Made by a program: the position numbers and the translations under genes. The notes under the pieces were generated by a model. That model was not told the DNA's origin. It ran no database searches and saw only the letters and a program-made list of their open reading frames with translations. Source: a virus. From it: a DNA stretch of 64,000 bases. The first letter of the stretch is position 1; each line of letters opens with the position of its first letter. The stretch spans positions 124,001 through 188,000 of the IMG/VR virus record IMGVR_UViG_3300029945_000001, one strand, 5' to 3'. Positions 1,243 through 61,768 of this stretch are shown in pieces.

Positions 1243-1322
1243 GCCGCAGTATCTCCTTGGCCTTCTAAGCTATTGAAAGAGTAACTGGACACATGGGGGT
1301 TCGAATCCCTCCTGCGGCGCCA
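1243..1322 (+). tRNA. atypical tRNA-like element with encoded CCA, D-arm missing
   Basis: A perfect 7-bp acceptor (1243-1249 with 1312-1318), discriminator G1319 and encoded CCA (1320-1322) are present. The T-arm is canonical: stem 1295-1299/1307-1311 and the seven-base loop TTCGAAT. The central part is not canonical. The best anticodon-like hairpin (stem 1258-1261/1269-1272) has a seven-base loop with TCT in anticodon position, read by Arg-type tRNAs. Only seven bases separate the acceptor from it, so no D-arm can form, and 21 bases separate it from the T-arm. It may be a degenerate tRNA-Arg, a tRNA mimic, or a domain of a larger RNA. The acceptor/T half is certain; tRNA function is not. Confidence 0.55.
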
Positions 1323-3012: not shown

Positions 3013-3750
3013 ATGAAAATACGATCTGCTAATAAAAAGAGGCTGGCTAGATATAAAAAAGATAATATTAGAAAATTAAATGCTATACGTAAAATTAAAC
3101 AATATATCAACACTGCTATACCTGATTGTATTGTTGTTAATATTAAAATAAAGATAAAATTAAAAGACTATATCGATAATACTTATAAATCTGATAGCTA
3201 TTATTTACGTCTCATTATGAAAGCAAGAAACATAAATAGGGCAGTAATTTATTTTAATGATGTGATAAAACTTAGATGGAATTCCCTGTATGGTGCTTCT
3301 TGTAATAATAATCCATATTCTCTTAAAATGTATAAAGATATGTATGATAGATTTAGTAAAGTTGTTAAAGACTTCAATATTAATGTCATAACATCTACCC
3401 AGATAGATAGTACGAAAATATCATCTGGTATATATAGTACTGATTCAGAAAGCTTAACGGAACAAACAAATTCATATTTATCAATATCCAAAGATCCTGA
3501 AGTTCTTGATAAAATTGTTAGATTAGAAAATAGAAAAATGGTAAAATTATTTGGAGAAAATAACTATAAAGTCGATACAGAATTGAGTTTTACTTCTGAT
3601 GAATCAGTATTACAAGTTTTTAAAAGAGAAGTAAACGACTTGGATGCTGAGGTAGTTTATGGTCCAAGCAAAGTTCAGGTTCCTGGAAAACTTAATATAG
3701 AAATTAAATATATCAGTATTAATAAGGAAAATACAAATGGGGATGTATGA
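3013..3750 (+). CDS. hypothetical protein, basic N-terminus
   Basis: 245 aa, not recognised. The first about 35 residues are strongly basic (KKRLARYKKDNIRK), which suggests nucleic-acid or membrane-surface contact; the C-terminal third is acidic. No transmembrane segment or catalytic motif is evident. Of two possible ATGs (3007, 3013) the second has better spacing to the AAAGGA ribosome site at 2999-3004. It opens a run of small genes and its end overlaps the next gene by 14 bases, indicating translational coupling. Confidence 0.8.
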   Translation: MKIRSANKKRLARYKKDNIRKLNAIRKIKQYINTAIPDCIVVNIKIKIKLKDYIDNTYKSDSYYLRLIMKARNINRAVIYFNDVIKLRWNSLYGASCNNNPYSLKMYKDMYDRFSKVVKDFNINVITSTQIDSTKISSGIYSTDSESLTEQTNSYLSISKDPEVLDKIVRLENRKMVKLFGENNYKVDTELSFTSDESVLQVFKREVNDLDAEVVYGPSKVQVPGKLNIEIKYISINKENTNGDV

Positions 3751-4129
3751 TAATTTTTATATACCTACTGACAATAAATTTAATATATTTATTCCACACA
3801 GATTTAAAAACGAACCTTTTGTTACGTTTCAGACAAAACAACTATCATGCGATCTTATTCACTATGAATTTTCCAGAGAGGGTTATCTAAAAATAAGAGA
3901 TATTGGTAGATCTTCGCATAGTATTTTTACTCAAATATATATAGACATGGTTAATACAGGAAAATTTTCTACTAATGACGAATGGATAGATTTTGATAAC
4001 CGATTATTAACTCTATATCCTGCGTTTGGGTATCCAGATAGATTTGTAGAGTTTCATTTTAATATAATTAATAATAAAATACAAGAAGTTTATAATAATA
4101 AAAAAGATCTTATTTTTGAATTTAAGTGA
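3737..4129 (+). CDS. small phage protein, MGMYD N-terminus
   Basis: 130 aa. The opening MGMYDNFYIP and the later VTFQTKQLSCDL resemble a common small-phage-protein family that starts MGMYD and contains an FQTK segment, usually with zinc-binding cysteine pairs between them. Those cysteines are absent here, so if it belongs to that family it has lost the metal site. Function unknown. Overlaps the preceding gene and ends at a palindromic hairpin. Confidence 0.75.
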   Translation: MGMYDNFYIPTDNKFNIFIPHRFKNEPFVTFQTKQLSCDLIHYEFSREGYLKIRDIGRSSHSIFTQIYIDMVNTGKFSTNDEWIDFDNRLLTLYPAFGYPDRFVEFHFNIINNKIQEVYNNKKDLIFEFK

Positions 4130-4155
4130 TAGATGGACATTAATGTCCATCTATC
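4128..4155. terminator. palindromic hairpin between genes
   Basis: 13-bp perfect inverted repeat 4128-4140/4143-4155 overlapping the stop codon of the previous gene. No strong T-run follows, so it may be an attenuator or mRNA end-stabiliser rather than a strong terminator. Confidence 0.6.
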
Positions 4156-4175
4156 ATACCATTTAAGGAGAGGAA

Positions 4176-5048
4176 ATGTATCCGACATATGAGACTATAG
4201 ATCTTAATACCGATCAGTCACACCAAGAAGATAGAAAACTGTTCTTAATGAGTGGTGGTCTGGATTCAACATATATGATCTTAGAAGAATTAGAAAGTGG
4301 TAATAATATTGATATTTTGACTATTTATTGTGGCCAAGATGTCAATAAATATAAAAGAGAAAAACAAGCTATAAAAGACATCTTAAATGCACTAAAAGAA
4401 ATAAAAAACGAAAAAGACAAAAAAGATATTAAATTTGGTAAGGTTATAAAATGGTTTGTTGTCGACGATGGGCTTGATTTTAGAGGAGGTATTCTTAACA
4501 ATCATGTCTGTCTTTGTCAACCGCCGAGTTGGATTATAACAAGTATCTATGTATTACAACCTTACCACGCATCTTTAAATATCGGGTATATCACCGGAGA
4601 TAGTATTATTGGAATGTTAGATTATCTCGTCTATATTTTCGAAAATCTTACTTATATAACATTTGGAAAAACGACCAACCTTTTGTTCCCTTTATGTAGA
4701 CCTAATGGTAATGTGATGGCTGCGCGTACAAAAGAACAAGTTGTTAATGCTTTAAAAGATAGAGACTTATATCATTTGGTGTGGACTTGCGAATTCCCTT
4801 ATGAAAGAAATAATGAAATAATTGAATGTGGTGATTGTCATCCATGTCGTACTAAAAGAGCTTATGATGAACGGTTTAATAGAAAGATGTTTAAATTGCA
4901 TGCAGTATCTTTAGATACAGAAACATACGATGAAGAAAACAAGGACCAATTAAATCTTCCACCTATTCCTAAACTTTTAGTATCAAAATCAGAGTATATT
5001 GATAACAAAGAGATTACCGACGAAGCTTGTGAATCCGAACCACAATAA
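4176..5048 (+). CDS. queC: QueC-like 7-cyano-7-deazaguanine synthase
   Basis: 290 aa. An ATP-pyrophosphatase PP-loop SGGLDS is at residues 27-32 and a QueC-type zinc site CGDCHPCR follows about residue 217, preceded by the VWTCEFP segment typical of the family. QueC converts carboxydeazaguanine to preQ0 using ATP and ammonia. In phages this pathway usually feeds deazapurine insertion into DNA as protection against restriction, or tRNA queuosine. The C-terminal tail of about 50 residues is longer than usual and acidic. No other pathway gene (QueD, QueE, FolE, DpdA) is in the window, so they must be elsewhere or supplied by the host. Preceded by an AAGGAGAGG ribosome site. Confidence 0.88.
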   Translation: MYPTYETIDLNTDQSHQEDRKLFLMSGGLDSTYMILEELESGNNIDILTIYCGQDVNKYKREKQAIKDILNALKEIKNEKDKKDIKFGKVIKWFVVDDGLDFRGGILNNHVCLCQPPSWIITSIYVLQPYHASLNIGYITGDSIIGMLDYLVYIFENLTYITFGKTTNLLFPLCRPNGNVMAARTKEQVVNALKDRDLYHLVWTCEFPYERNNEIIECGDCHPCRTKRAYDERFNRKMFKLHAVSLDTETYDEENKDQLNLPPIPKLLVSKSEYIDNKEITDEACESEPQ

Positions 5049-5068
5049 TAAAAAGGAAAAATTCTATA

Positions 5069-5521
5069 ATGAATAATACTCTTCATGAGTTTGATGGGAA
5101 TGGTTGGGATCTTTTATGGTATTTATTCAATTTTCAATCAAGTAATAATGGAAAATCACTATTATTATTTCTTAATGATGAAGGTGAATATTTTGGAATG
5201 TATAAGTTTGTGCAATATAGTCATGCAGAGAATAGAATCATAGTTACTAAAAGAACGATTTATTCTTATGAAAAACATATACAAAATTCACAAGATATAA
5301 TAGACGGTGTTACAGTAACTACTGAATATTCTAATATTTGTAATAGTCCAGTTATGCTTGATAGTTATTTGTTATCATATATTTATACTAAAATGATAAG
5401 TTTTGGCGTCATTAAAGATATATACACATCTGGTCCTTATTGGTATAATACATTCGACCTAGAAAGATATACTAAAGAAATTATACAGGGAAATTTATAC
5501 ACAGATATGTTTTCCTTATAG
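5069..5521 (+). CDS. hypothetical protein
   Basis: 150 aa, not recognised; soluble, aromatic-rich, no signal or membrane segment. AAAGGAAAA precedes the ATG. Its last residues contain LERYTKEI, and the gene at 6005 starts with the near-identical LERYTKAI, encoded by an 18-base identical DNA string, so the two genes may share an origin or have recombined there. Confidence 0.75.
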   Translation: MNNTLHEFDGNGWDLLWYLFNFQSSNNGKSLLLFLNDEGEYFGMYKFVQYSHAENRIIVTKRTIYSYEKHIQNSQDIIDGVTVTTEYSNICNSPVMLDSYLLSYIYTKMISFGVIKDIYTSGPYWYNTFDLERYTKEIIQGNLYTDMFSL

Positions 5522-5573
5522 TAAATTATTGAGATATTTGTACATGTTCATGAAAAAAAACGGAGGTCCTAAG

Positions 5574-6011
5574 ATGAACGATATTGTATTAGAAATTCTA
5601 GAAACAATAGATCGTGCTATATATAACAAACCGGTAGTCTTTGTAACAAAAATTAATACGGATTATGTTTTAAATGTATTATTTAAAGATATGAAGAAAG
5701 ATATGCGTAGCTATGAAATAGCAAGTATGGTTAAAGAAAATGATTATCTTTCTATTGTGACAAAACAAGGTTATAAATTATCTGTATTTCAACACGACCG
5801 CGAACTTACTGATGAAATAGAAGCTCTTTTTGGTTCTGATAAAATAATATTTAAATCAGATGTTGATTCGATACATACTGAATATGAAACTGACCCTACC
5901 GATGATGAGTTATGTACAGTACCAGATAATTCTACAAACATACACAATGGTAGAACTAATGATAAGCAAAGGATGAATCATTACGATCCTGGGAGGGTAA
6001 AACGATGGTAA
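5574..6011 (+). CDS. hypothetical protein
   Basis: 145 aa starting at ATG 5574, placed by GGAGG at 5562-5566; an in-frame upstream ATG at 5529 lacks a ribosome site. The N-terminal part is a mixed alpha/beta-looking domain, residues about 85-125 are acidic, and the end is basic (GRVKRW). Not recognised. Overlaps the next gene by seven bases. Confidence 0.75.
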   Translation: MNDIVLEILETIDRAIYNKPVVFVTKINTDYVLNVLFKDMKKDMRSYEIASMVKENDYLSIVTKQGYKLSVFQHDRELTDEIEALFGSDKIIFKSDVDSIHTEYETDPTDDELCTVPDNSTNIHNGRTNDKQRMNHYDPGRVKRW

Positions 6012-6529
6012 ATTTAGAAAGATATACTAAAGCAATTGTTGACATTGAAGCTAGAAATATTTTTCATCAATATAATGCCTATGAAGCATCAATAGATTGG
6101 CCAAAGCCTTATTATCCTAGATATGATGAATGTAGATATTTAACACCTGAATTAACCAAAGAAGAGATAATATCGAGATTGCATAGAAAAATTTCTCAAA
6201 ACATATTAAAGAGCTATACTACATATACTAAAGAAATGTTGGATAATATTAGTACTATTATTTCTTTTAAAAGAAATAATAGCATAATGATAACGTGTGG
6301 AGGACATGGACTTTGTGTTGGTGATATTGTACGTCCTATCGAAATGATAAGTAATCTACCTGATACTTTCAATGGAATGTATACTGTTACTTCTCTATCT
6401 TCATACAATACTTATGTGATAGTTGAAACTCAATCACTTAGTGTGGGTAAACCAAAATCTAAGAATGATAGTTTAGGTAATCTTGTAGATCCTAGATTCA
6501 ATGCTAAATATGGACCAAAAAGGAGATAA
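6005..6529 (+). CDS. hypothetical protein with HGL-GD beta domain
   Basis: 174 aa. Residues about 97-150 hold the pattern C-G-G-HGL-x3-GDIV ... FNGMYTVTSL ... YVIVET, like a small beta domain often found in phage virion proteins (HGL..GD..NG.Y.V). Hence possibly a minor structural or receptor-contact protein, although it sits in an accessory block. Starts seven bases before the previous stop; ribosome site GGGAGG at 5991-5996. Confidence 0.7.
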   Translation: MVNLERYTKAIVDIEARNIFHQYNAYEASIDWPKPYYPRYDECRYLTPELTKEEIISRLHRKISQNILKSYTTYTKEMLDNISTIISFKRNNSIMITCGGHGLCVGDIVRPIEMISNLPDTFNGMYTVTSLSSYNTYVIVETQSLSVGKPKSKNDSLGNLVDPRFNAKYGPKRR

Positions 6530-17776: not shown

Positions 17777-17849
17777 TAATATAGAGAAATGGCAATCTAG
17801 ATTGCTACTCTGTTGTATGCATCCAACAACTTCTTCAAGGAAATTTACG

Positions 17850-18827
17850 ATGGCTATCAATTCAGTTTGGGCCGGCACCGAGTCCTTCGGTACTGCCGTT
17901 AAGTCGATCAGTGCGATCGACGCTACCATCAATATGCTCGGCAACACTTCCTGTGACATGTCTTCGGCTTTCGCCATGGAGTCGCTGAGCTCACAGATCG
18001 ACGTGATGAAGCATGCCTATGGGCAGATCAAGGCCGGCAAGTCAATCGGTGGCATGGAAACTCTTTATCCGAACGTCTTCGGCAGCGTCGCCGGCCTGGA
18101 ATCTGGTGCGTTCAACAAGGCCGCTGCCCTGGAAGGCCTTGGCGAGAAGATCAAGGAGACGGCCTCTCGTTGGTGGCAGGCTGCCAAGGAACATGTGGTC
18201 AAGTACAAGAAGTGGTACATCGGCGCCGCCATTGCCATTGCCACTACCGCCGCTGTCATCGCCGGATTCAAGACCGAAACTGGCCGCAACGTTGCGACCT
18301 GGGTTGGCAAGAAGGCCGTCAAGATCCCCGGCGTCCAGGCCGTCAAGAATTGGCTGGAGTGCATTCGTCGTTCGCGTGCTGAGCTGAATCGTGCTGCCGC
18401 CCTGGCCAAGGACAATCCTGCTGCCGCCAAGACCTGTGCCGAGAACGCCAGCAAGATCATCGCCGGCGAAAAGATGGAACTGACTCAGGTCCATCTGGAT
18501 GCTGCCGCTGCTCAGAAAGAGCTGATCGATTACAAAGCTGCCACCATTGCGGCCGCCAAAGAATCGAACTTCGCCAAGGCCGATATCGCCAAGATCGAAG
18601 CGCTCTGCGACAAGAACATCAATGCCAAGGACCCCGGCGCCAACGCCACCGCCGCTCGTGGTGCTTGGAACATGATCCTGGCTGTTCTGAAGAGCTTCGG
18701 TCATCTGATCGTCTCCGGCTTCGCCAAGGTCAGCGGTGCTGCCAAGTGGTTGTGGAGCCAGCTGTCCAGCAAGGAAGCTCGTGCCGAGACCAAGGGCAAG
18801 ATCGCTGGCGCGGCGGCCAGTGCTTAA
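17850..18827 (+). CDS. highly expressed inner-body-type virion protein
   Basis: 325 aa from ATG 17850, chosen by AAGGAAA at 17837-17843. The N-terminus AINSVWAGTESFG aligns with those at 18909 and 20020. LESGAF and AAALEGLGEK (about residues 83-100) match the SLEN and A-x-E-G landmarks of the family. A hydrophobic stretch rich in Ala/Ile (about residues 125-145, IGAAIAIATTAAVIAGF) may be a membrane helix, and the rest is Ala/Lys-rich helix. Codons are strongly G/C-ending, unlike the AT-rich neighbours, pointing to very high copy number. Probably an abundant internal or ejected virion protein. Confidence 0.72.
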   Translation: MAINSVWAGTESFGTAVKSISAIDATINMLGNTSCDMSSAFAMESLSSQIDVMKHAYGQIKAGKSIGGMETLYPNVFGSVAGLESGAFNKAAALEGLGEKIKETASRWWQAAKEHVVKYKKWYIGAAIAIATTAAVIAGFKTETGRNVATWVGKKAVKIPGVQAVKNWLECIRRSRAELNRAAALAKDNPAAAKTCAENASKIIAGEKMELTQVHLDAAAAQKELIDYKAATIAAAKESNFAKADIAKIEALCDKNINAKDPGANATAARGAWNMILAVLKSFGHLIVSGFAKVSGAAKWLWSQLSSKEARAETKGKIAGAAASA

Positions 18828-23853: not shown

Positions 23854-24357
23854 ATGACTAAGACCGCTGAAGTTACCACCAAGGAAGTCACCATCAAGGA
23901 AGTCACCACCAAACCCCGTTATGTGGAGCTGGCTGAAAAGCTGACTGAGCTCGCCAAGGCTGGTGACAAGAGCACTGTCGTTGCCTGGGGTGCCGCCGCT
24001 CCCATCGTCGAAGCTGTGACCGGGACCGATGCCGGCATGTTCAAGCAGGTCAATGACACCATCGGCGACCTCTCGAATGCCGCTATCACCATGGCCGGCA
24101 CCGGACTTATTCCCAAGATCGAAGAAGCCAAGAAGGACGGTATCGATCCGTCTGAATTGACCTATCGTGCACGCATCGCCATTCCGGGCGGATCTGTTGC
24201 TGCGATCGTTCGTGCCGAATCGACCTCGCGCAATCCTCGCACTGGCGAAACGAAAGCTGTCTATGGCCGGGCAGCCGTCGAAGTCAACTTCGATGCCGCC
24301 ATCGACAAGGACAATGTGGCTTCATTCTCGAATCGTATCGCCACGCTCCTGGGTTAA
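23854..24357 (+). CDS. abundant small protein of unknown function
   Basis: 167 aa. The N-terminus has imperfect repeats of TKEVT (about residues 3-20), followed by a compact alpha/beta domain with a Gly/Ala-rich centre; no known motif. Codons are almost all G/C-ending, in sharp contrast to the flanking genes, and a promoter motif of the TATATTAC class precedes it. These features indicate very high expression, perhaps early. Candidates include a DNA-coating or shell protein; not determined. Confidence 0.75.
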   Translation: MTKTAEVTTKEVTIKEVTTKPRYVELAEKLTELAKAGDKSTVVAWGAAAPIVEAVTGTDAGMFKQVNDTIGDLSNAAITMAGTGLIPKIEEAKKDGIDPSELTYRARIAIPGGSVAAIVRAESTSRNPRTGETKAVYGRAAVEVNFDAAIDKDNVASFSNRIATLLG

Positions 24358-30039: not shown

Positions 30040-32355
30040 TTAAGCCTGGGGATCAGTCTCATCGATTTCAGCATCGGCATTAACTAAGGCCTGACCGACA
30101 CCATCGACACCTGAAGTCAGAACGCCATCGTTGCCAACCAGAGGATTGTTGTTCACCTGGATGGATTCAGACAACATCAGCTTCAGAATGGCATCGAGAC
30201 CCTTAACGCTGATGATCATGCCGATCGGGTTCGTCGGGTAGACGACCTCACGGCTGTTGGCGACAGCGCGCTGAGTCACGGCCATGGCGTTGTTGAACGT
30301 GAACTTGCCGGCGAAGATGCCACGGTCCAGATTCTTGCCAAAGCTGATGACGCTTTCCGGGTCAGCATCGCGAACCGGGACGATGAGCATCAGACCTTCA
30401 AAGTTCTTGTACGACGTGGCGACGCAGTCGATGCGTGAGCCGTTCGGAAGATAGAAGCTGTAGTCTGCCGACGGAGCTTCTTCGACGCGAGTGTCGTTCA
30501 GTTCGTTGAAGTAGGTTTTGATGGCCAGCAGGGTTGCAATGATCGTCGGGGTGGTGACCAGACGATACACAGCCTTTTCGCCAGGGTTCAGCTGGTTCAG
30601 GTACAGCGAGGTCAGCTGCGAGTCGGCGATGATCGCATTCAGACGATTCATAACCAGCGAATGCATGTCCGAGTTACGCTCGGTTTCACGCATAACGACG
30701 GCATTGGAAACGTCCAGAACACCACGCCAGACATTCGGGTTACACAGAGTGCCGGCCAGGAAGTCCTGAGCCACCGAATTGTACCAGTCGATGAGGGGAT
30801 CGGTTTCCTCGTGCTTCAGGCGATTGTAGACGTTGTTCAGGCACTCGCCGATCATGCGAACGGCCTTGGCATCATTGCCCAGCGACATGATATCATTGAG
30901 GATCTTGATGATGTCTTCGGCCGACTTGCCTTCAGTGTCCTTGATGCTGTATTCGGCGGTGTACATGCGAGACACGGGAATATAGAAGGACTGCTCCTTC
31001 TGTGTCACGCGAGCCGAAATATTCGCCTTGCGCATATTTTCTTCGCTGTACTGGGCGAAGGGTTCGAAAGCGAACAGCGAGAAGGACAGCTTGTTGTAAG
31101 CAGTATTCACGGCATCCGCAACGGTCGTGCCGGCGGCAGGGAAAAGCTGGGCGTTCAAGCTACCATAGCCTGTCGAGGCGCCGGTCTTGAGGTTAAGCTT
31201 CATGGTGAAGTTGAGATCGATTTCGGCACCGGCGTCACCAAGAACAGACAACAACGATGACGCAGTGCCCGCAGCGGTAACAGCAGTCGAAGGAATGACA
31301 CGCTGGATACGAGGAGCTGCTTCACGATCGGCCGAGTCGTTCGTGTTGGTGCGCTGCACCAGACGCGAGGCTGCCTGATATTCGGTACGAACAGGGATAT
31401 ATTCCGTGGTCGTGCCGTCGGTGACGGCGATCCAGACTTCGCGAACATAGGCGCCTTCGCCGATGATGTCAGTCCAGTTCAGATTGTCGTAGCCGACGGT
31501 GTTGGAGCTGACGCCGAGCTTGAACATGTTGAACGGCACGCCGACCTTAACCAAGTTCTGGTGAACCAGGACAGGGTTGGTCGAATCGTCGTTTTCCATG
31601 AACAGTTCGACACGTTTGGCGGTGGTGTCGACGAACGAAGGATCGCGCATCAGCCGGATCAGAGGAGTGCGAATGGCGTTCGAATAGCGAATATCGGCGT
31701 TCGGGTTCTGCGAAGCAGCCAGATCGTAAACATCGCCATTGGCGATCTTGGTGACGACGACGGTTTCTTCGGTAGCGATGCGCGGCAGGATACGATCGAT
31801 CAGCGACTTGAAGACGCGCAGCATGGTCAGCGAGATCGACAGACGAACATCGGTGACGACGCTATCGATGCCTTCACCGAACGACTCGCCGGCAGCGATA
31901 TCGTTAGTGACAGCATTGACACCACCATTGCCGAACAGCGAGCCCAGAGCGATGCATTCGGTTCCGGCAACGCCGCCCTTGGCATCAGCAAAGTTGGCAT
32001 TGGTCGAATGCAGATGCCCCATGACACCAAGCGTAGCAGCTTCGATGGCCGCCGCAATGCGAGGATTGGTACGATCCAGACGATTGTTCTGGGTCGAGCC
32101 GCTCATCGATTCGATGGTACCGATGACGAAGTTTTCAACGGCGGCCAGGTCGATGCGCTCTTCAGCGCCACGAATGACGGTCATCGGCTTGTCGAAATAT
32201 TCCAGGCCGGCAGCATTGGTGACCGAAGCAACCAATGAATTCGAACTCAGAAATGATTCTGTCGCCGCAGCCAGAGTGAACGCAGCACCCAGAGACAGAC
32301 CGCTGTTCTGGGCAACACCACGCAGCTGCTGCTTCCATGAATTAAGTTTGCTCAT
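30040..32355 (-). CDS. probable major capsid protein precursor
   Basis: 771 aa from ATG at 32355 (AGGAGT upstream). The length matches PhiKZ-type capsid precursors of about 750 aa. Composition and codon use (G/C-ending, unlike neighbours) indicate extreme expression, as expected of the shell protein. The first about 110 residues are Ala/Ser-rich helix typical of a removable propeptide, with A-x-E sites such as AAIEAATLG (about 108). The body is beta-rich. No definitive capsid motif can be read by eye, so assignment rests on size, expression signature, operon position next to an acidic morphogenesis-like gene, and a dedicated terminator. An abundant tail-sheath protein is the main alternative. 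Confidence 0.7.
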   Translation of the reverse strand: MSKLNSWKQQLRGVAQNSGLSLGAAFTLAAATESFLSSNSLVASVTNAAGLEYFDKPMTVIRGAEERIDLAAVENFVIGTIESMSGSTQNNRLDRTNPRIAAAIEAATLGVMGHLHSTNANFADAKGGVAGTECIALGSLFGNGGVNAVTNDIAAGESFGEGIDSVVTDVRLSISLTMLRVFKSLIDRILPRIATEETVVVTKIANGDVYDLAASQNPNADIRYSNAIRTPLIRLMRDPSFVDTTAKRVELFMENDDSTNPVLVHQNLVKVGVPFNMFKLGVSSNTVGYDNLNWTDIIGEGAYVREVWIAVTDGTTTEYIPVRTEYQAASRLVQRTNTNDSADREAAPRIQRVIPSTAVTAAGTASSLLSVLGDAGAEIDLNFTMKLNLKTGASTGYGSLNAQLFPAAGTTVADAVNTAYNKLSFSLFAFEPFAQYSEENMRKANISARVTQKEQSFYIPVSRMYTAEYSIKDTEGKSAEDIIKILNDIMSLGNDAKAVRMIGECLNNVYNRLKHEETDPLIDWYNSVAQDFLAGTLCNPNVWRGVLDVSNAVVMRETERNSDMHSLVMNRLNAIIADSQLTSLYLNQLNPGEKAVYRLVTTPTIIATLLAIKTYFNELNDTRVEEAPSADYSFYLPNGSRIDCVATSYKNFEGLMLIVPVRDADPESVISFGKNLDRGIFAGKFTFNNAMAVTQRAVANSREVVYPTNPIGMIISVKGLDAILKLMLSESIQVNNNPLVGNDGVLTSGVDGVGQALVNADAEIDETDPQA

Positions 32356-32357
32356 TG

Positions 32358-34034
32358 TCAAAGAACTCCTGAAATACGCGTATTAAGACCAAGCTTGGTC
32401 AAGAGCGTTTTGGTTGCATCAATGGAAGATGTGAATAACCACAGCTTACACCATTCGTCAAGATAGGCTTTAGTTTCTGAAGAATACTGAGGATCATTCT
32501 TAATATCACCATTGAGTTTAGCAACAGCGAGTCTAACAAAATGATCATTTAGAGTCTCTTTGGAATCGATCAGCGGAATGAACAGCTGAGAATTCTCATC
32601 TTCGGAGATTTCATCAGAGACTTCAGATGATGCAGAACCATCGTCTTGATTGTCTATATTATCATCATCACCATTATCTATAGTGTTTGTATCACCAAAG
32701 TTAGCGTCATCAGATGTTCCATCGCCAGATTCATCGGTTCCTTGTGAATTGGTGTCATCATCGCTGATAGTACTATCAGGATTAGCATCACTATTACTAT
32801 TATTATTGGTAGTATCTTCACCAGAAATATCAGAACTTGGGGAAGCATCAGACGAATCATCTTTGTTAGGAACTTTCGTTTCATCGTCTGATCCCTTTGT
32901 GTCTTTATTATCTACTGTATTTTCAGGATCATCTTCTTCTGATATGGGTTTATCTGCTTCGATATTATCATCTTGATTATTTTCAGTGGCATCTGTTTTA
33001 TCTTCATTTTCCTCATCGTCTTCTTCATCATCTTTAACATCGCCTAGAGCTTCTAATCCATAAAAATATCCAGTATCGTGTCCACTACCGGATACGAAAC
33101 CATTTGGTGATTTTTTATAATAATAATCATCAACATAAATAAGAACTCTATCAATACTATCATAATTTTCAATTCCTTCTAAAGCATCACGTATTCTTTC
33201 CCAATAACGAGTGGCGTCTTTAACATCATAAATGTAATAACCAGTATTGTCGGCACCAACATTTTCAAAATTGCTAACATGTATGGCAAATGCTTTATTC
33301 TTAGTATATTTCAAACAAAGATTTGCACAGACAAAATTCTTATATGAAATAATACCATTATTAATAGCATTAATAGGAAGAGCAGTCAATGCAATAACTT
33401 TAGCAATTTCTAAAAAGCTAGGTTTCATCGTAAGAAACTTAAGACTATTTATCATCTTCCAGTAATTATCCGAATTCTTATTAAATTTGCTATTACAAAT
33501 CAATTCATCTGTATCAATGACAACATGATGGATAGGATCTAATTGTAATGGGAATAGATCGCTTTTCAAATTGACTCTAGGGACATAAAAAATAGTTTTT
33601 GTATTGGTAGTTTCAAAATTAATAGCTGAGAAGATAGCTAGAATACCATTTAATTTAGATAATCCGTGTTTCAGATATAATCCTTTTAATAAAGGAATAT
33701 CACTATCAATAATATTGTTTGTATGAATATACTTATTTACATATTGACCAATCTGGCTATCTTTAACTGATTGAGACATAGTAATGATATTATCTTTAAC
33801 CAATGATAATAAAGCAAGAACATGAGAATGAGTATTAGATTCAACAAATATATTAAAATATTTATACATAATAATTTGTTCTAAAAGAAGCTTATCATTA
33901 TCAAGATCGACATTTCTAATGTCTATATTTATTTTAAGATCTAAATTAATAGCAGTATCATCAAAAATAACTTTATCAAGTACTGAAATATTTCTGAAAA
34001 TATCATTTAAAACAATAAGTGGCTGTCTGTCCAT
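32358..34034 (-). CDS. morphogenesis-type protein with long acidic linker
   Basis: 558 aa from ATG at 34034 (AAGGAC upstream; a GTG at 34052 is an alternative). Residues 1-335 form a folded domain of unknown type, residues about 336-480 are a low-complexity stretch made almost wholly of Asp, Glu, Ser, Asn and Thr, and the last 75 residues are folded and helical. The stop lies two bases before the capsid gene start, so the two are translationally coupled. Scaffold, portal-like or capsid-assembly role is inferred from position; no portal motif was recognised. Confidence 0.72.
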   Translation of the reverse strand: MDRQPLIVLNDIFRNISVLDKVIFDDTAINLDLKINIDIRNVDLDNDKLLLEQIIMYKYFNIFVESNTHSHVLALLSLVKDNIITMSQSVKDSQIGQYVNKYIHTNNIIDSDIPLLKGLYLKHGLSKLNGILAIFSAINFETTNTKTIFYVPRVNLKSDLFPLQLDPIHHVVIDTDELICNSKFNKNSDNYWKMINSLKFLTMKPSFLEIAKVIALTALPINAINNGIISYKNFVCANLCLKYTKNKAFAIHVSNFENVGADNTGYYIYDVKDATRYWERIRDALEGIENYDSIDRVLIYVDDYYYKKSPNGFVSGSGHDTGYFYGLEALGDVKDDEEDDEENEDKTDATENNQDDNIEADKPISEEDDPENTVDNKDTKGSDDETKVPNKDDSSDASPSSDISGEDTTNNNSNSDANPDSTISDDDTNSQGTDESGDGTSDDANFGDTNTIDNGDDDNIDNQDDGSASSEVSDEISEDENSQLFIPLIDSKETLNDHFVRLAVAKLNGDIKNDPQYSSETKAYLDEWCKLWLFTSSIDATKTLLTKLGLNTRISGVL

Positions 34035-38166: not shown

Positions 38167-39462
38167 ATGCACTTTGATATTTCCACGCTGACTGCTGACG
38201 CTTTGACTTCTGCTACCATGATTGGTACTCTTGTTTCGGAGTCCGCAGCCCCCCTCATCGACTGGGACAGCATGCGCAAGGAGATCGAATCCTGGCCGCT
38301 GGTCTCGGAGGTGCCGCAGGACAAGGACGTTCCGCAGCTGAACATGACTTCGATCACCGGCAAGACCTGCCGTGAGCTGGTCAAGGGCGGCATCAAGACC
38401 GAGAATTTCATCGCCATCATCAAGTCGATGCTGAATGTCCGCGCCCATGTCATGTCCTCGAACGCCGGCAAGGCCCAGACTCTTTATCCGACCGTGAACG
38501 AATATGGCGCCCGTGAAGTCGGCAATGTCATCGTCGTCGCCAACAAGCATGCCGGCAAGCCCCGGTCGATCAACATCAATCGCCAGGCTTATGACCATCC
38601 GAAGAATGCCAATGACGAGACCCGTGGTCGTCAGCGGCACGTCAGCTGCGTCGTCGAAGTCGGTGGCTATATCGGTTTCGCTTTCTACAACAAGTTCTCT
38701 CCGAACACCCTGATCCAGACTTTCTTCCAGGTCACGCATGTCATTCCGCTCGGCGGCGACAGCAAGCTGTTCGAAATCGGCATGACCCTGGTTCATGCGG
38801 CGTTCGCTTCGGCCGCCGACGGCAAGGTCCTGGCCACTCCTCTGGAAGATGATACTCCGCTGGCCAATCTGATCGATGCGATGCAGCGTCGTTTGGCCGT
38901 CGGTGCTCTTCAACTGGATTGGCCGCTGTACAGTCAGATCTTCGTTCCGCATTTCGGCCTGAAGAATGACACCGCCGCCGGCATCGCCAAGATCGATCAT
39001 TGGAAGGATCTGCACTCCGACACCGTGACTGCCAATCTCGACAAGCCGGTCAGTGCCGACATCACCGACATTGAAATCGATCTGATGCACAATCTGGTCG
39101 AAGCGCGTGCCACCTCCACGCCGAAGACCGACGGCGATGGCAATGCCGTCTATGATGAAACTGCTCTGGTCATCAGCCATCACATGGACGACACCGGCAA
39201 TACCATCCGTGCGATGATGACCCTGATCAACAACAACGAAACCATCTGGACCGGCGTCACCGACATCACGGCCAACAACTTCGATCGTCCGGTCGGTGAT
39301 GACATCACCTATCCGAGCGGCAAGTTGAAGGCGGCGGTTCTCGATCCGGCCCTGATTCTCGGCGCCACCACGTTCCAGCGTCTGAAGACCGACGTCATCA
39401 ATCGTCAGGTCGAAGGAAAGCATCCTGTGGAGAACCCGACCATCCTGGGCATTCTGCGTTAA
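38167..39462 (+). CDS. very highly expressed protein of unknown function
   Basis: 431 aa. No domain recognised; soluble, mixed alpha/beta, with a duplicated-looking arrangement of VGG/GGY turns near residues 160-190. Codons are strongly G/C-ending, the gene has its own TATATTA-class promoter, a structured leader and a strong terminator, so it is a dedicated single-gene high-output unit. Candidates are a tail-tube or other major virion protein or a nucleus-shell-type protein of a PhiKZ-like phage; the sequence read by eye does not decide. Ribosome site weak (GGGAAT). Confidence 0.75.
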   Translation: MHFDISTLTADALTSATMIGTLVSESAAPLIDWDSMRKEIESWPLVSEVPQDKDVPQLNMTSITGKTCRELVKGGIKTENFIAIIKSMLNVRAHVMSSNAGKAQTLYPTVNEYGAREVGNVIVVANKHAGKPRSININRQAYDHPKNANDETRGRQRHVSCVVEVGGYIGFAFYNKFSPNTLIQTFFQVTHVIPLGGDSKLFEIGMTLVHAAFASAADGKVLATPLEDDTPLANLIDAMQRRLAVGALQLDWPLYSQIFVPHFGLKNDTAAGIAKIDHWKDLHSDTVTANLDKPVSADITDIEIDLMHNLVEARATSTPKTDGDGNAVYDETALVISHHMDDTGNTIRAMMTLINNNETIWTGVTDITANNFDRPVGDDITYPSGKLKAAVLDPALILGATTFQRLKTDVINRQVEGKHPVENPTILGILR

Positions 39463-58188: not shown

Positions 58189-59775
58189 ATGTCTAGTGTT
58201 TCCGGTTTTGGTACTCAGGAAAGCGATTCTCCCAAGGCTCCGCAGGGCGAAAAGCAGGCTCCTGGTTTCAGCAATTCTCAGCAGGAAAAGAAGCGTTCTC
58301 TCCTGCACAGTTCATTGTCCGAATTTGACAGCTTCTCGACGCAGTCCCCGCAGCTATCGAAGTTCGTCGAGCGTATGGAAAAGGAAATCCCCGGCGCCAA
58401 GGTCGTTCGCATCCCTGAGCCGTCCAACACTCTGGCGGTGATGGTCGACAACATGTTCTATGTTCTGCTGTTCCCCGACATGGGCGTTCAGTTCGGAACT
58501 CTTGAATTCAAGCGCAAGGCGTTCATCGCTTATTTCCCGAGCGTTCGCAAGCGCCTCGAAGCTGATTTCGCGAATTGCACCATCATTCAGAATGCCATCG
58601 TCATTCCCGAAGACTACCAGAACGAAACTCGCGTCGGCGCCATCATCGCCCATCTGCGGTCTACGTTCTCGGCGAACAAGCCTGGCAATCTGGATGTCTA
58701 CGGGTCGATCAGCTTCTTCAAGGGTTCGACCTTGACGATCTCGACGTCGTTGGCTGAAGTCCACAACTACTACGATCGCCATTGGCCGTTCGTGACCAAG
58801 CCGCGTTTCGACTACGGCATCGTTGTCAGCTCTCCTGTTCGTGACGAACTGTCGGTCTCCAACAACGAACCGACGGAACCGAAACAGCTGTTCGTCGTCG
58901 GCGGCTACACCAGCTTCGTTCGGACCAATCCTCCGAACAACTCATTGGCTCGCGAAAAGCTTCCGCATGTTCTGGCTCCGATCGTGCACATTTCTTCTGT
59001 GTTCTCGATCATGCCGATCAATGCCTTCGCTCCTCTCGCCATCGGCCTGGGTGGGTCGAAGTTCCTCTATGATGGTCTGTGGCTGTCGCCTTATACTTCA
59101 TTCGAAAGCGGAAAGCCGAACCTCGGCCGCCTGATGCCGGATGTTCTGGACAACAGCCGCAATGAACTGATGTCGTGCGACAACATGGACGACGTTAAGC
59201 AGTTCGTCCAGATCGCCTGCTTGACTCCTGTTCTGGCTATCGATAACATCCCTGGCGTTCCGACGCTGTCCATGCTCAAGCTGTTCATGGACGATGGCAA
59301 CAACAAGCGGGTCATCGATGCCTTCAGTGACTTTATGGGCAAGCCGTATGATGGCAATAGCGACATCTTTTCGGTCGCTTCGACGGTCATCACCGGCATC
59401 GTCAACTACCCTGACAGCCCGACCGATAGTCGCGTCGTCGACTATATGTCACTGGTCAGCGGTAAGGGATATCCTGCTGAGGAAATCTCGAACCTGCTGG
59501 ACGTCTATGAGAACCAGCATTACCAGGCTTCGATTGTCGCCAAGCATTCGAAGTTCATTCCGCTGTCGTACAACATTGTCAGCATCCTGAAGCCGTCTTT
59601 TGTGCAGGCCCTGGTCAATGCTATCAACAACGGCGTGACCATCAAGCAGTCCAACAGCAATACCAGCAGCAGTAACACCAACTGGCTGATCGATATGGCC
59701 AAGGGCTATAGCGAGGCTCGTCTGAGCATGGGTGCCAATACTGTCGAAGGTGGTCTCGGCGGCATGTACCTGTAA
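58189..59775 (+). CDS. very highly expressed protein of unknown function (528 aa)
   Basis: 528 aa. The first 45 residues are polar and disordered-looking. The remainder is a well-folded alpha/beta protein with no motif I recognise; residues about 480-500 are a Ser/Asn-rich loop and the end is GGLGGMYL. Codon use is strongly G/C-ending and the gene has its own promoter and a strong terminator, the same layout as the 38167 gene. Among abundant phage proteins of this size the options are tail sheath, or the nucleus-shell protein of PhiKZ-like phages, which is of comparable size; neither can be confirmed here. Confidence 0.75.
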   Translation: MSSVSGFGTQESDSPKAPQGEKQAPGFSNSQQEKKRSLLHSSLSEFDSFSTQSPQLSKFVERMEKEIPGAKVVRIPEPSNTLAVMVDNMFYVLLFPDMGVQFGTLEFKRKAFIAYFPSVRKRLEADFANCTIIQNAIVIPEDYQNETRVGAIIAHLRSTFSANKPGNLDVYGSISFFKGSTLTISTSLAEVHNYYDRHWPFVTKPRFDYGIVVSSPVRDELSVSNNEPTEPKQLFVVGGYTSFVRTNPPNNSLAREKLPHVLAPIVHISSVFSIMPINAFAPLAIGLGGSKFLYDGLWLSPYTSFESGKPNLGRLMPDVLDNSRNELMSCDNMDDVKQFVQIACLTPVLAIDNIPGVPTLSMLKLFMDDGNNKRVIDAFSDFMGKPYDGNSDIFSVASTVITGIVNYPDSPTDSRVVDYMSLVSGKGYPAEEISNLLDVYENQHYQASIVAKHSKFIPLSYNIVSILKPSFVQALVNAINNGVTIKQSNSNTSSSNTNWLIDMAKGYSEARLSMGANTVEGGLGGMYL

Positions 59776-59924: not shown

Positions 59925-61206
59925 ATGCATATTAACAAACTCAATCCTGATGCTATTTTAAATTTAGAATCTACATCTACGTCTACTAAAGAGATCGTTA
60001 GACATGTTGGTTTTTGTAACTTAGAAGAATTATATGCTGGATCAAAAGAAGCTATTTGTTTAAATGAAATTCCTTTAGGAAATAAAGATTATGCACAACA
60101 GCGTAATCGTATGTTATTCTCAAGAAGTGGTGATTTGAGTTTTATTGCATCTTGTGAATGTGGGCATTATTTTGGTAATTATTATAAAGGACAAATTTGT
60201 AATATTTGTCACAGTGAAGTTATTGACGATTTCGCTGCTTATAACAAAATTCAACATAAAACTTGGTTATCTATTCCACATGGTATCAAAGTACTTCATC
60301 CTATGTTTTATAAGCTTCTTACAAATTCTTGGTTAAAGAGTGGGTACCTAGAAGCAATTTTAAACCCTAATGCACAATTACCTCCTGAATTAGAAATGCA
60401 TATTGATGGACAAGGTTATGTTTATTTCTATGAAAATTTTGATAAGATCATAGATTACTTTGCACGTATCAATAGTGTTACAAGTAAGAAACCAATTACG
60501 AAAGATATTTTAGAAGTTATTGCAAAGAATAGAGATTTGGTCTTTACAAATAAGCTTCCTATTTTGTCTAGTGTTGTTCATTCTGTTACAAACGATGGAA
60601 CACATGGTGGTCGTCAATTTGTTGATTCTGGATCTAAACTTATCCTTAATGCTGCTACTGATTTACAATGTATTTCAGATAGAGAAACAGTTCGAGTAAA
60701 AACATTATTGAAAACTATTTATGATGTTTATTCATCTTATATCAGTTATATCGATGAAATCATTAGTGATCGTATTGGTGCAAAAAGATCTATTTTCAGA
60801 GGTCAGATTTTAGGGACTAGAACACACTTTTCTTTTAGAGGTGTTATTTGTCCACATGAAGATAAATATGATCATTTGTACTTGCCATGGTCTATGGGTG
60901 TTAATACTTATAAAGATCACATTATTGGTAGATTAATTGATGATTACAAAATGGCTCCTGGAGATGCTGTTCTTAGACAACGTATCGCCTTGGTTGAATT
61001 TGATAAAGATATCAATGATATATTTATTAAACTTATTAACGATAGTCCATTTGAAGGATTACCAACGACATTTTGTAGACACCCTTGTTTAAAACGTGGC
61101 GGTGTTCAATTCTTGTATATTACTAAATTTAAAACAAACATACATGATAATACTATTAATATTGGTGTTCCTGTTAGTCATGTTACGAAGGACCCGAATG
61201 CAAAGT
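59925..61206 (+). CDS. RNA polymerase beta-prime-like subunit, N-terminal part, exon 1
   Basis: About 427 codons from ATG 59925 (AGAGGGGA at 59913-59920; the longer TTG frame from 59901 is not preferred). Beta-prime landmarks in order: a zinc ribbon with Cys77, Cys79, Cys92 and Cys95 (CECGHYFGNYYKGQICNIC); FRGQILGTRTHFSFRGVICP (about 293), matching the F-R-x-x-L-G-x-R-x-x-x-S-x-R-x-V-I motif; RHPCLKRGGVQFLYI (about 385), matching the PTLHRLGIQAF segment; then NTINIGVP leading to the active site. The active-site residues are in exon 2. The frame as read continues into the intron to a stop at 61271. Spliced product about 489 aa. Like PhiKZ-type polymerases, beta-prime appears split into several proteins. 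Confidence 0.88.
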
Positions 61207-61580
61207 TAATTGGCCTACTTGAAAGTAATTTCAAGATAGAATTCTCCTTAATTGCGGGAAAACCTCGTTAAGCATCATATACCAAACATCCCTCAGAAAT
61301 GAGATATACAGGATGTGGCCAATCTAATCAATTGGGTATGGTAAAAACTATGATGATAGAGAAAGTCCGCAGCGAAGCTTCTACGGAACATCGGATGATG
61401 TGCTATGAAGAACGTTCAACGATCATGGGTTTATCACCCAGTAGACTCCCAAGTGGGAAAGAAATAGGAGATACCCTACTCCAATTGGACAGGGTAAAGA
61501 TATGATCTGGTCCACATAAAGATATGTGGCGGGTAGAACATACCGGGATATGAGAGAGATAACTTCAACGACATATCTGG
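61207..61580 (+). ncRNA. group I intron, no endonuclease ORF
   Basis: About 374 nt. Core elements are visible: 5' end TTAATTGGCC like the T4 td intron; P2 with GUAA tetraloop (61218-61224/61229-61235); the P3/P4 strand AATTGCGGGAAA (61250-61261); P4 pairing 61253-61257/61367-61371; P7 GATCAT 61421-61426 with ATGATC 61502-61507 in the AAAGATATGATC context typical of the S element; P8 (61473-61477/61491-61495); P9 (61512-61517/61524-61529). Boundaries are inferred: 5' site after U61206 by td alignment and 3' site after G61580 to keep frame; alternatives such as U61199/G61588 exist. No ORF of endonuclease size lies inside. Confidence 0.88.
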
Positions 61581-61768
61581 ACACAACGGACTTTGACGGA
61601 GATGAGATGACTGGTAATCCTATCTTTGAAAATGAAGCTGCTCGTAAGTTCAGTGTTCTGCATCCAGCAAATCGTATTCATAATACAAAATCATTTGGTA
61701 TTGCATCTGGCGTATCTTTGACATATCCTGTTCTGTCTACATTAAGTGCATTCTTGTCTTCTGATTAG
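61581..61768 (+). CDS. RNA polymerase beta-prime-like subunit, exon 2 with catalytic motif
   Basis: About 62 codons ending at TAG 61766-61768. It begins with TTDFDGDEM, the D-x-D-x-D Mg2+ triad of all multisubunit RNA polymerases (NADFDGD in bacteria, 61589-61603), and continues with a segment resembling the helix after it (EAARKFSVLHPANRI). The protein stops about 58 residues after the motif, so bridge helix and trigger loop must be in another subunit, as in PhiKZ-like phages. Without intron splicing the catalytic triad is not joined to exon 1. Confidence 0.85.

What the first reader, a model, noticed from the sequence alone, without database searches (positions are those of the whole stretch)
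61200..61600. ORF-less group I intron cutting an RNA polymerase beta-prime gene at its catalytic DFDGD motif
Exon 1 carries beta-prime landmarks up to the run before the active site, and exon 2 resumes at TTDFDGDEM. Between them about 374 nt has group I core elements (P2 GNRA hairpin, AATTGCGGGAAA strand, P7 GATCAT/ATGATC, P8, P9) and a td-like 5' end. Placing an intron in the one motif the polymerase cannot change is typical of homing elements. It could also make polymerase activity depend on splicing. Splice sites are inferred and at least two frame-keeping pairs are possible. Introns in PhiKZ-like phage RNA polymerase genes have been described, so the site class is known; this instance and its ORF-less state are what merit checking.
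Basis: partly seen in the sequence, partly recalled or inferred. Interest (0 to 1): 0.9.

Follow-up and report, generated by a model that had tools for sequence, protein, structure and literature searches.

The report
Self-splicing intron in phage polymerase gene
A jumbo phage's RNA polymerase gene is interrupted, right at the codons for its catalytic metal-binding site, by a short self-splicing RNA intron that carries no gene of its own; related phages are interrupted at many neighbouring points of the same few codons, so this is one case of a recurrent invasion hot spot.

Summary
Window 59925-61202 plus 61589-61768 encodes a phiKZ gp55-type beta' N-half subunit (phrog_2987), split at NA/DFDGD by a 386-nt group I intron. 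Rfam RF00028 scores 59.6 bits (cut-off 50). The fold is more stable than all 100 shuffles, and P4 and P7 differ from related introns by paired changes. Exon 1's frame stops inside the segment.

The 3' splice site (61588|61589) is firm. The 5' site is one of two, a codon apart. Joining 61202 to 61589 restores the invariant NADFDGD but puts A, not U, before the intron. Joining 61199 to 61589 has a better P1 but loses the Ala. No endonuclease gene lies in the intron, and three Pfam endonuclease families find none in the 208-kb record.

The kind is known. phiKZ has an HNH-bearing intron here (PDB 7OGP carries the joined product), and Goslar's GenBank record annotates one. Comparison found eight other inferred insertion points within 27 nt of this motif. 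In Goslar and Aeromonas PS1, two introns flank inferred 13-nt and 9-nt micro-exons at DFDGD. All splicing in the window is inferred; no RNA data were available.

The parts
59925..61202 (+). Exon 1 of the phiKZ gp55-type beta' N-half subunit, ending ...KDPNA (or 61199, ending ...KDPN)
   Evidence: phrog_2987 E 1.3e-60; PDB 7ogp_A E 1.2e-28; best-scoring join
61203..61588 (+). ORF-less group I intron, 386 nt (389 nt if the 5' site is 61199)
   Evidence: RF00028 59.6 bits; fold z -3.63; paired changes in P4 and P7
61589..61768 (+). Exon 2, DFDGDEMTGN... to stop
   Evidence: phrog_2987 profile positions 417-475, E 1.3e-4; found again at 8.1e-5
61218..61235 (+). P2 hairpin with GUAA loop
   Evidence: sequence; in MFE and centroid structures
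61243..61248 (+). P3 5' strand UCUCCU
   Evidence: pairs with 61466-61471
61252..61257 (+). P4 5' strand UUGCGG
   Evidence: pairs with 61367-61372
61367..61372 (+). P4 3' strand CCGCAG
61421..61426 (+). P7 5' strand GAUCAU
   Evidence: pairs with 61502-61507
61466..61471 (+). P3 3' strand AGGAGA
61502..61507 (+). P7 3' strand AUGAUC
61512..61529 (+). P9 hairpin CCACAUA-AAGA-UAUGUGG
61547..61577 (+). 3' hairpin (P9.2-like) GAUAUG...CAUAUC, 11 nt before the 3' splice site
   Evidence: spacing compared by eye with phiKZ and LucasX

Best explanation
An endonuclease-less group I intron (subgroup IA-like) interrupts the beta' N-half subunit gene of a phiKZ-type non-virion RNA polymerase inside the codons of the invariant NADFDGD motif. 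The precursor RNA folds into the ribozyme, guanosine attacks the 5' splice site, and the exons are joined, most likely 61202 to 61589, giving ...KDPNA-DFDGDEM.... Identity and position are shown from sequence. Splicing, its chemistry and the exact 5' site are inferred. It most likely persists as the remnant of a mobile intron that lost its endonuclease gene, because imprecise loss from this motif would be expected to kill the polymerase; that history is inference.
For: RF00028 59.6 bits, E 1.3e-14. Fold z -3.63. P4 and P7 differ from related introns by paired changes. Stop in frame within the segment. Of 1054 frame-keeping joins, 61202|61589 scores highest (371.2 bits) and is the only one of the three tied joins whose intron ends in G. 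The same join scoring recovers U-before / G-at-end sites in the controls and, for phiKZ, the product carried by PDB 7ogp_A. HNH-bearing and ORF-less introns share insertion points in relatives. phiKZ055 knock-down strongly reduced plaque formation (PMC12571901).
Against: No RNA data. With the preferred join the base before the intron is A and P1 is weak; the 13 other introns compared have U there. Loss of an endonuclease was not tested by phylogeny.
Confidence: 0.9

Rival explanations
1. Same intron, but spliced at the phiKZ position (61199|61589), giving ...KDPN-DFDGD, so the subunit lacks the otherwise invariant Ala.
For: U before the intron; AAU can pair with GUU, or with AUUGG if a G is bulged. 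Same position as phiKZ, KEN51, L197 and G001.
Against: Scores 360.1 against 371.2 bits. 79 of 79 uninterrupted homologues keep N[A/C] before DFDGD, and the inferred products of the other interrupted genes do too.
Confidence: 0.22
2. The intron no longer splices efficiently and the gene is decaying in this phage.
For: Weak P1 with A before the presumed 5' site.
Against: Both exons are open and keep the family's invariant residues. The core helices are intact. The three fetched contigs match the window over 10,076 bases with at most one substitution.
Confidence: 0.05
3. Gene in pieces: exon 2 is translated on its own from a start inside the 3' part of the segment and assembles with the exon 1 product.
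For: An 80-residue ORF (61526-61768, GTG start) covers exon 2.
Against: It would separate DFDGD from the rest of its fold. phiKZ, with an intron at the neighbouring codon, has the joined chain in its solved polymerase.
Confidence: 0.03

Closest known systems
phiKZ gp55 / gp56 / gp56.1 (AF399011, NC_004629)
   Same: Homologous gene, RF00028 intron at 75.6 bits, insertion within NADFDGD
   Different: One codon upstream (N^A), 1372 nt, carries gp56, annotated as HNH endonuclease; U before the intron and a full P1
Escherichia phage Goslar gp55 homologue (MK327938), annotated Intron_gpI
   Same: Group I intron annotated at the same motif
   Different: Inserted in the Phe codon, carries a NUMOD1/HNH gene, and a second intron is inferred here
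Pseudomonas phage PS119XW and Xanthomonas phage LucasX gp55 homologues
   Same: ORF-less group I introns of 362 and 411 nt next to or in the motif
   Different: Insertion after DFDGD (PS119XW) or before PNA (LucasX); U before the intron
PhiPA3 gp210 intron (PMC11620839)
   Same: Group I intron next to conserved Asp codons of a jumbo-phage RNA polymerase gene
   Different: Beta subunit of the virion polymerase; encodes an HNH endonuclease that acts on phiKZ gp178; PhiPA3's gp55 homologue is uninterrupted

Membership tests
Group I intron (RF00028) | Covariance-model match above the curated cut-off | tested here: met
   59.6 bits, cut-off 50
Group I intron (RF00028) | Core helices P3, P4, P7, P8 with paired changes among relatives | tested here: met
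   P4 and P7 paired changes, P3 fully paired; P8 in the MFE structure
Group I intron (RF00028) | Intron ends in G | tested here: met
   61588 is G in the best join
Group I intron (RF00028) | U before the intron, paired with G of the guide strand | tested here: inconclusive
   A at the preferred site; U at the alternative site one codon upstream
Group I intron (RF00028) | Self-splicing in vitro | not testable with these tools
   No RNA experiment possible
phiKZ gp55-type nvRNAP beta' N-half subunit | Family profile match over both exons, with DFDGD | tested here: met
   phrog_2987; PDB 7ogp_A
Mobile (homing) intron | Own endonuclease gene | tested here: not met
   No endonuclease-size ORF in the intron; no PF13392, PF01844 or PF01541 match in the record. 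LAGLIDADG and other families were not searched
Nucleus-forming phage (Chimalliviridae) | Chimallin gene, found just upstream of gp55 in the relatives inspected | tested here: inconclusive
   ORF 58189-59775 lies there, but profile comparison gives 0.4% probability and the single-sequence model is unusable, pLDDT 36

The most novel reading that the evidence does not exclude
The intron sits at an insertion point not seen in the other members (A^D) and uses a 5' splice site without the usual U-G pair, so that splicing is slow or needs a helper and gates the supply of the phage's own polymerase.
Probability: 0.08. Interest if true: 0.75.

Novelty: new member of a known kind. Interest (0 to 1): 0.45.

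Why it matters
The catalytic-motif codons of this polymerase gene are a recurrent invasion target. Besides the window's site, eight different inferred insertion points within 27 nt are occupied in other jumbo phages, with and without HNH genes, and two phages are hit twice. That makes the gene a natural series for testing how introns choose sites, lose endonucleases and create micro-exons in an essential active site. It also suggests a reciprocal experiment: phiKZ carries an HNH intron where the PhiPA3 homologue has none, the mirror image of the published gp210 case. Practically, such genes are annotated as truncated or hypothetical proteins.

Tried and rejected
The whole-window Rfam scan at gathering threshold missed the intron, resolved by a focused scan. 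BLASTN of the intron found only short core matches. A core-pattern scan of IMG/VR gave 80 stretches, of which only the window's phage and PA7 lay at DFDGD. A guide-strand plus P4 pattern found only the same phage. A pattern for the window's 3' junction found no other gp55 intron. The first LucasX join used a wrong exon 2 frame, corrected. Chimallin identity of the upstream ORF was not supported. A translated insertion was rejected because of the in-frame stop.

Full report
What was checked. The window is bases 124001-188000 of a 208,374-base IMG/VR virus record. ORF 59925-61272 and an open frame ending at 61768 flank the reported segment. Exon 1 matches phrog_2987 (RNA polymerase beta subunit, the phiKZ gp55 family) at profile positions 7-409 and exon 2 at 417-475. 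The exon 1 frame stops at 61270-61272, so the segment is not simply translated. The downstream ORFs match phrog_3254, 3294, 5171 and an SbcD-like family, an arrangement resembling that of EaH1 and Moabite.

Is it a group I intron? A fast Rfam scan of the whole window gave only tRNAs. A focused scan gave RF00028 over 61186-61529, 59.6 bits against a cut-off of 50, E 1.3e-14, and a search of the whole record found the same single place. The 386-nt RNA folds to -103.4 kcal/mol against a shuffle mean of -85.3, z -3.63, none of 100 shuffles as stable. P4 is UUGCGG/CCGCAG, where all ten other introns compared have UUGCUG on the 5' strand and nine have CAGCAG opposite. P7 is GAUCAU/AUGAUC, where nine have GACU... 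with ...AGUC and Goslar intron 2 has GAAUAC/GUAUUC. These are the paired changes expected of a folded RNA. Hairpins between P7 and the 3' strand of P3 point to subgroup IA; that assignment rests on general knowledge.

Splice sites. A profile was built from 79 uninterrupted IMG/VR homologues, all selected by and reading N[A/C]DFDGD. The search pattern that brought them in was N[A/C]DFDGD, so this set cannot show how rare other residues are. The alignment of eight reference proteins also has the motif throughout. All 1054 frame-keeping open joins in the scanned ranges of the window were scored. The best, 371.2 bits, is CCGAATGCA^GACTTTGAC (61202|61589). Two joins tie with it by sliding, but their introns do not end in G. 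The phiKZ-like join 61199|61589 scores 360.1. As a control, eight other genes (phiKZ, PS119XW, L197, G001, phi9_PA9, KEN51, XC32, PA7) gave a top join, or a tie including one, with U before the intron and G at its end. LucasX first failed because exon 2 was read in the wrong frame; in the right frame it also fits. For phiKZ the inferred product PNADFDGDQLN equals PDB chain 7ogp_A, named PHIKZ055 and PHIKZ056.1.

The unresolved point. At 61202 the base before the intron is A and P1 is weak, whereas the 13 other introns compared have U there. For Goslar and PS1 I placed the sites by hand, and ties elsewhere were broken in favour of U, so that count is not fully independent. At 61199 there is a U, and AAU can pair with GUU, or with AUUGG if a G is bulged, but the product would lack the Ala. 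I favour 61202 on the protein evidence, about 3 to 1. The 3' site is common to both.

Relatives and what is known. phiKZ carries an RF00028 intron one codon upstream, with gp56 inside it, annotated as HNH endonuclease. Introns without an endonuclease-size ORF occur in PS119XW, LucasX, L197 and phi9_PA9. KEN51 has an annotated HNH gene there; PA7 and G001 have long intron ORFs that look HNH-like by eye, not by profile search. So one insertion point can have both states: PA7 with, PS119XW without; phiKZ, KEN51 and G001 with, L197 and phi9_PA9 without. In the window's own record no HNH, HNH_3 or GIY-YIG match was found; other endonuclease families were not searched and the record may be incomplete. 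Two phiKZ polymerase structure papers do not use the word intron in the main text (PMC8287921, PMC7618050). PMC11878797 says that of phiKZ and PhiPA3 only PhiPA3 has an intron in the RNA polymerase gene, which overlooks gp55. Goslar's GenBank record does annotate Intron_gpI here. The kind is therefore known; I found no description of the series in the open-access papers searched, and most subscription papers are not held.

A hot spot. The inferred insertion points are: before PNA (LucasX); N^A (phiKZ, KEN51, phi9_PA9, L197, G001); A^D (window); D^F and G^D (PS1, two introns); within the Phe codon and after the Ala that follows DFDGD (Goslar, two introns); FD^GD (XC32); and after DFDGD (PS119XW, PA7). 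That is eight besides the window's, spanning 27 nt. In Goslar a 13-nt micro-exon CGACGGTGACGCT gives NADFDGDAMN and outscored the other candidates among 429 by 13 bits. Rfam lists only the first Goslar intron, at 46.9 bits, below the cut-off; the second core was recognised by its motifs. In PS1 a 9-nt micro-exon TTCGACGGT gives NAD-FDG-DNMYLF; including it raised the profile score from 265.8 to 288.6. Rfam finds both PS1 cores, at 79.6 and 42.4 bits, the latter below the cut-off. fnug and Bobae have a further intron upstream, at HRN^PTLQ. All these joins are predictions from sequence.

Mechanism. Without removal of the segment no continuous catalytic motif can be made, so splicing is the most economical reading. 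Knock-down of phiKZ055 strongly reduced plaque formation (PMC12571901). Persistence as the remnant of a homing intron fits the mix of states at shared sites, but no intron phylogeny was made. I found no evidence bearing on regulated splicing.

Limits. The three fetched IMG/VR contigs match the window over 10,076 bases with at most one substitution, so they add no independent variation. Intron-bearing phages were not sampled systematically, so no prevalence is claimed.

Noticed in passing
L216 (Escherichia phage Goslar, MK327938) 3757-5564: Two group I introns appear to flank a 13-nt micro-exon (L216 5197-5209, CGACGGTGACGCT) so that NADFDGDAMN is made from three exons; GenBank annotates only the first intron.
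   Followed up: partly
L215 (Aeromonas phage PS1, NC_070998) 3767-5401: Two introns appear to flank a 9-nt micro-exon (L215 4241-4249, TTCGACGGT), splitting the motif as D / FDG / D; exon 3 starts at 5402. The second intron holds the annotated HNH gene.
   Followed up: partly
L214 (fnug) 5140-6370 and L212 (Bobae) near 3140: A further group I intron lies upstream in the same gene, at HRN^PTLQRG, with ORFs of endonuclease size in fnug and none in Bobae.
   Followed up: partly
window 17817-18827, 23854-24357, 30043-32358, 38167-39462, 58189-59775: Five genes have third-position GC of 0.64-0.74 while most genes of the window have 0.10-0.23. No PHROG function was found for them; they might be highly expressed genes with adapted codon usage.
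   Followed up: partly
window 58189-59775: A 528-residue GC-rich ORF stands where relatives have the chimallin (nuclear shell) gene, but profile comparison does not link it to chimallin.
   Followed up: partly
window 61150-61202: Exon 1 has three residues more between INI and NADFDGD (INIGVPVSHVTKDPNA) than the uninterrupted homologues listed.
   Followed up: no
window 1243-1319: A tRNA match just at the cut-off (29.2 bits) with an odd structure.
   Followed up: no
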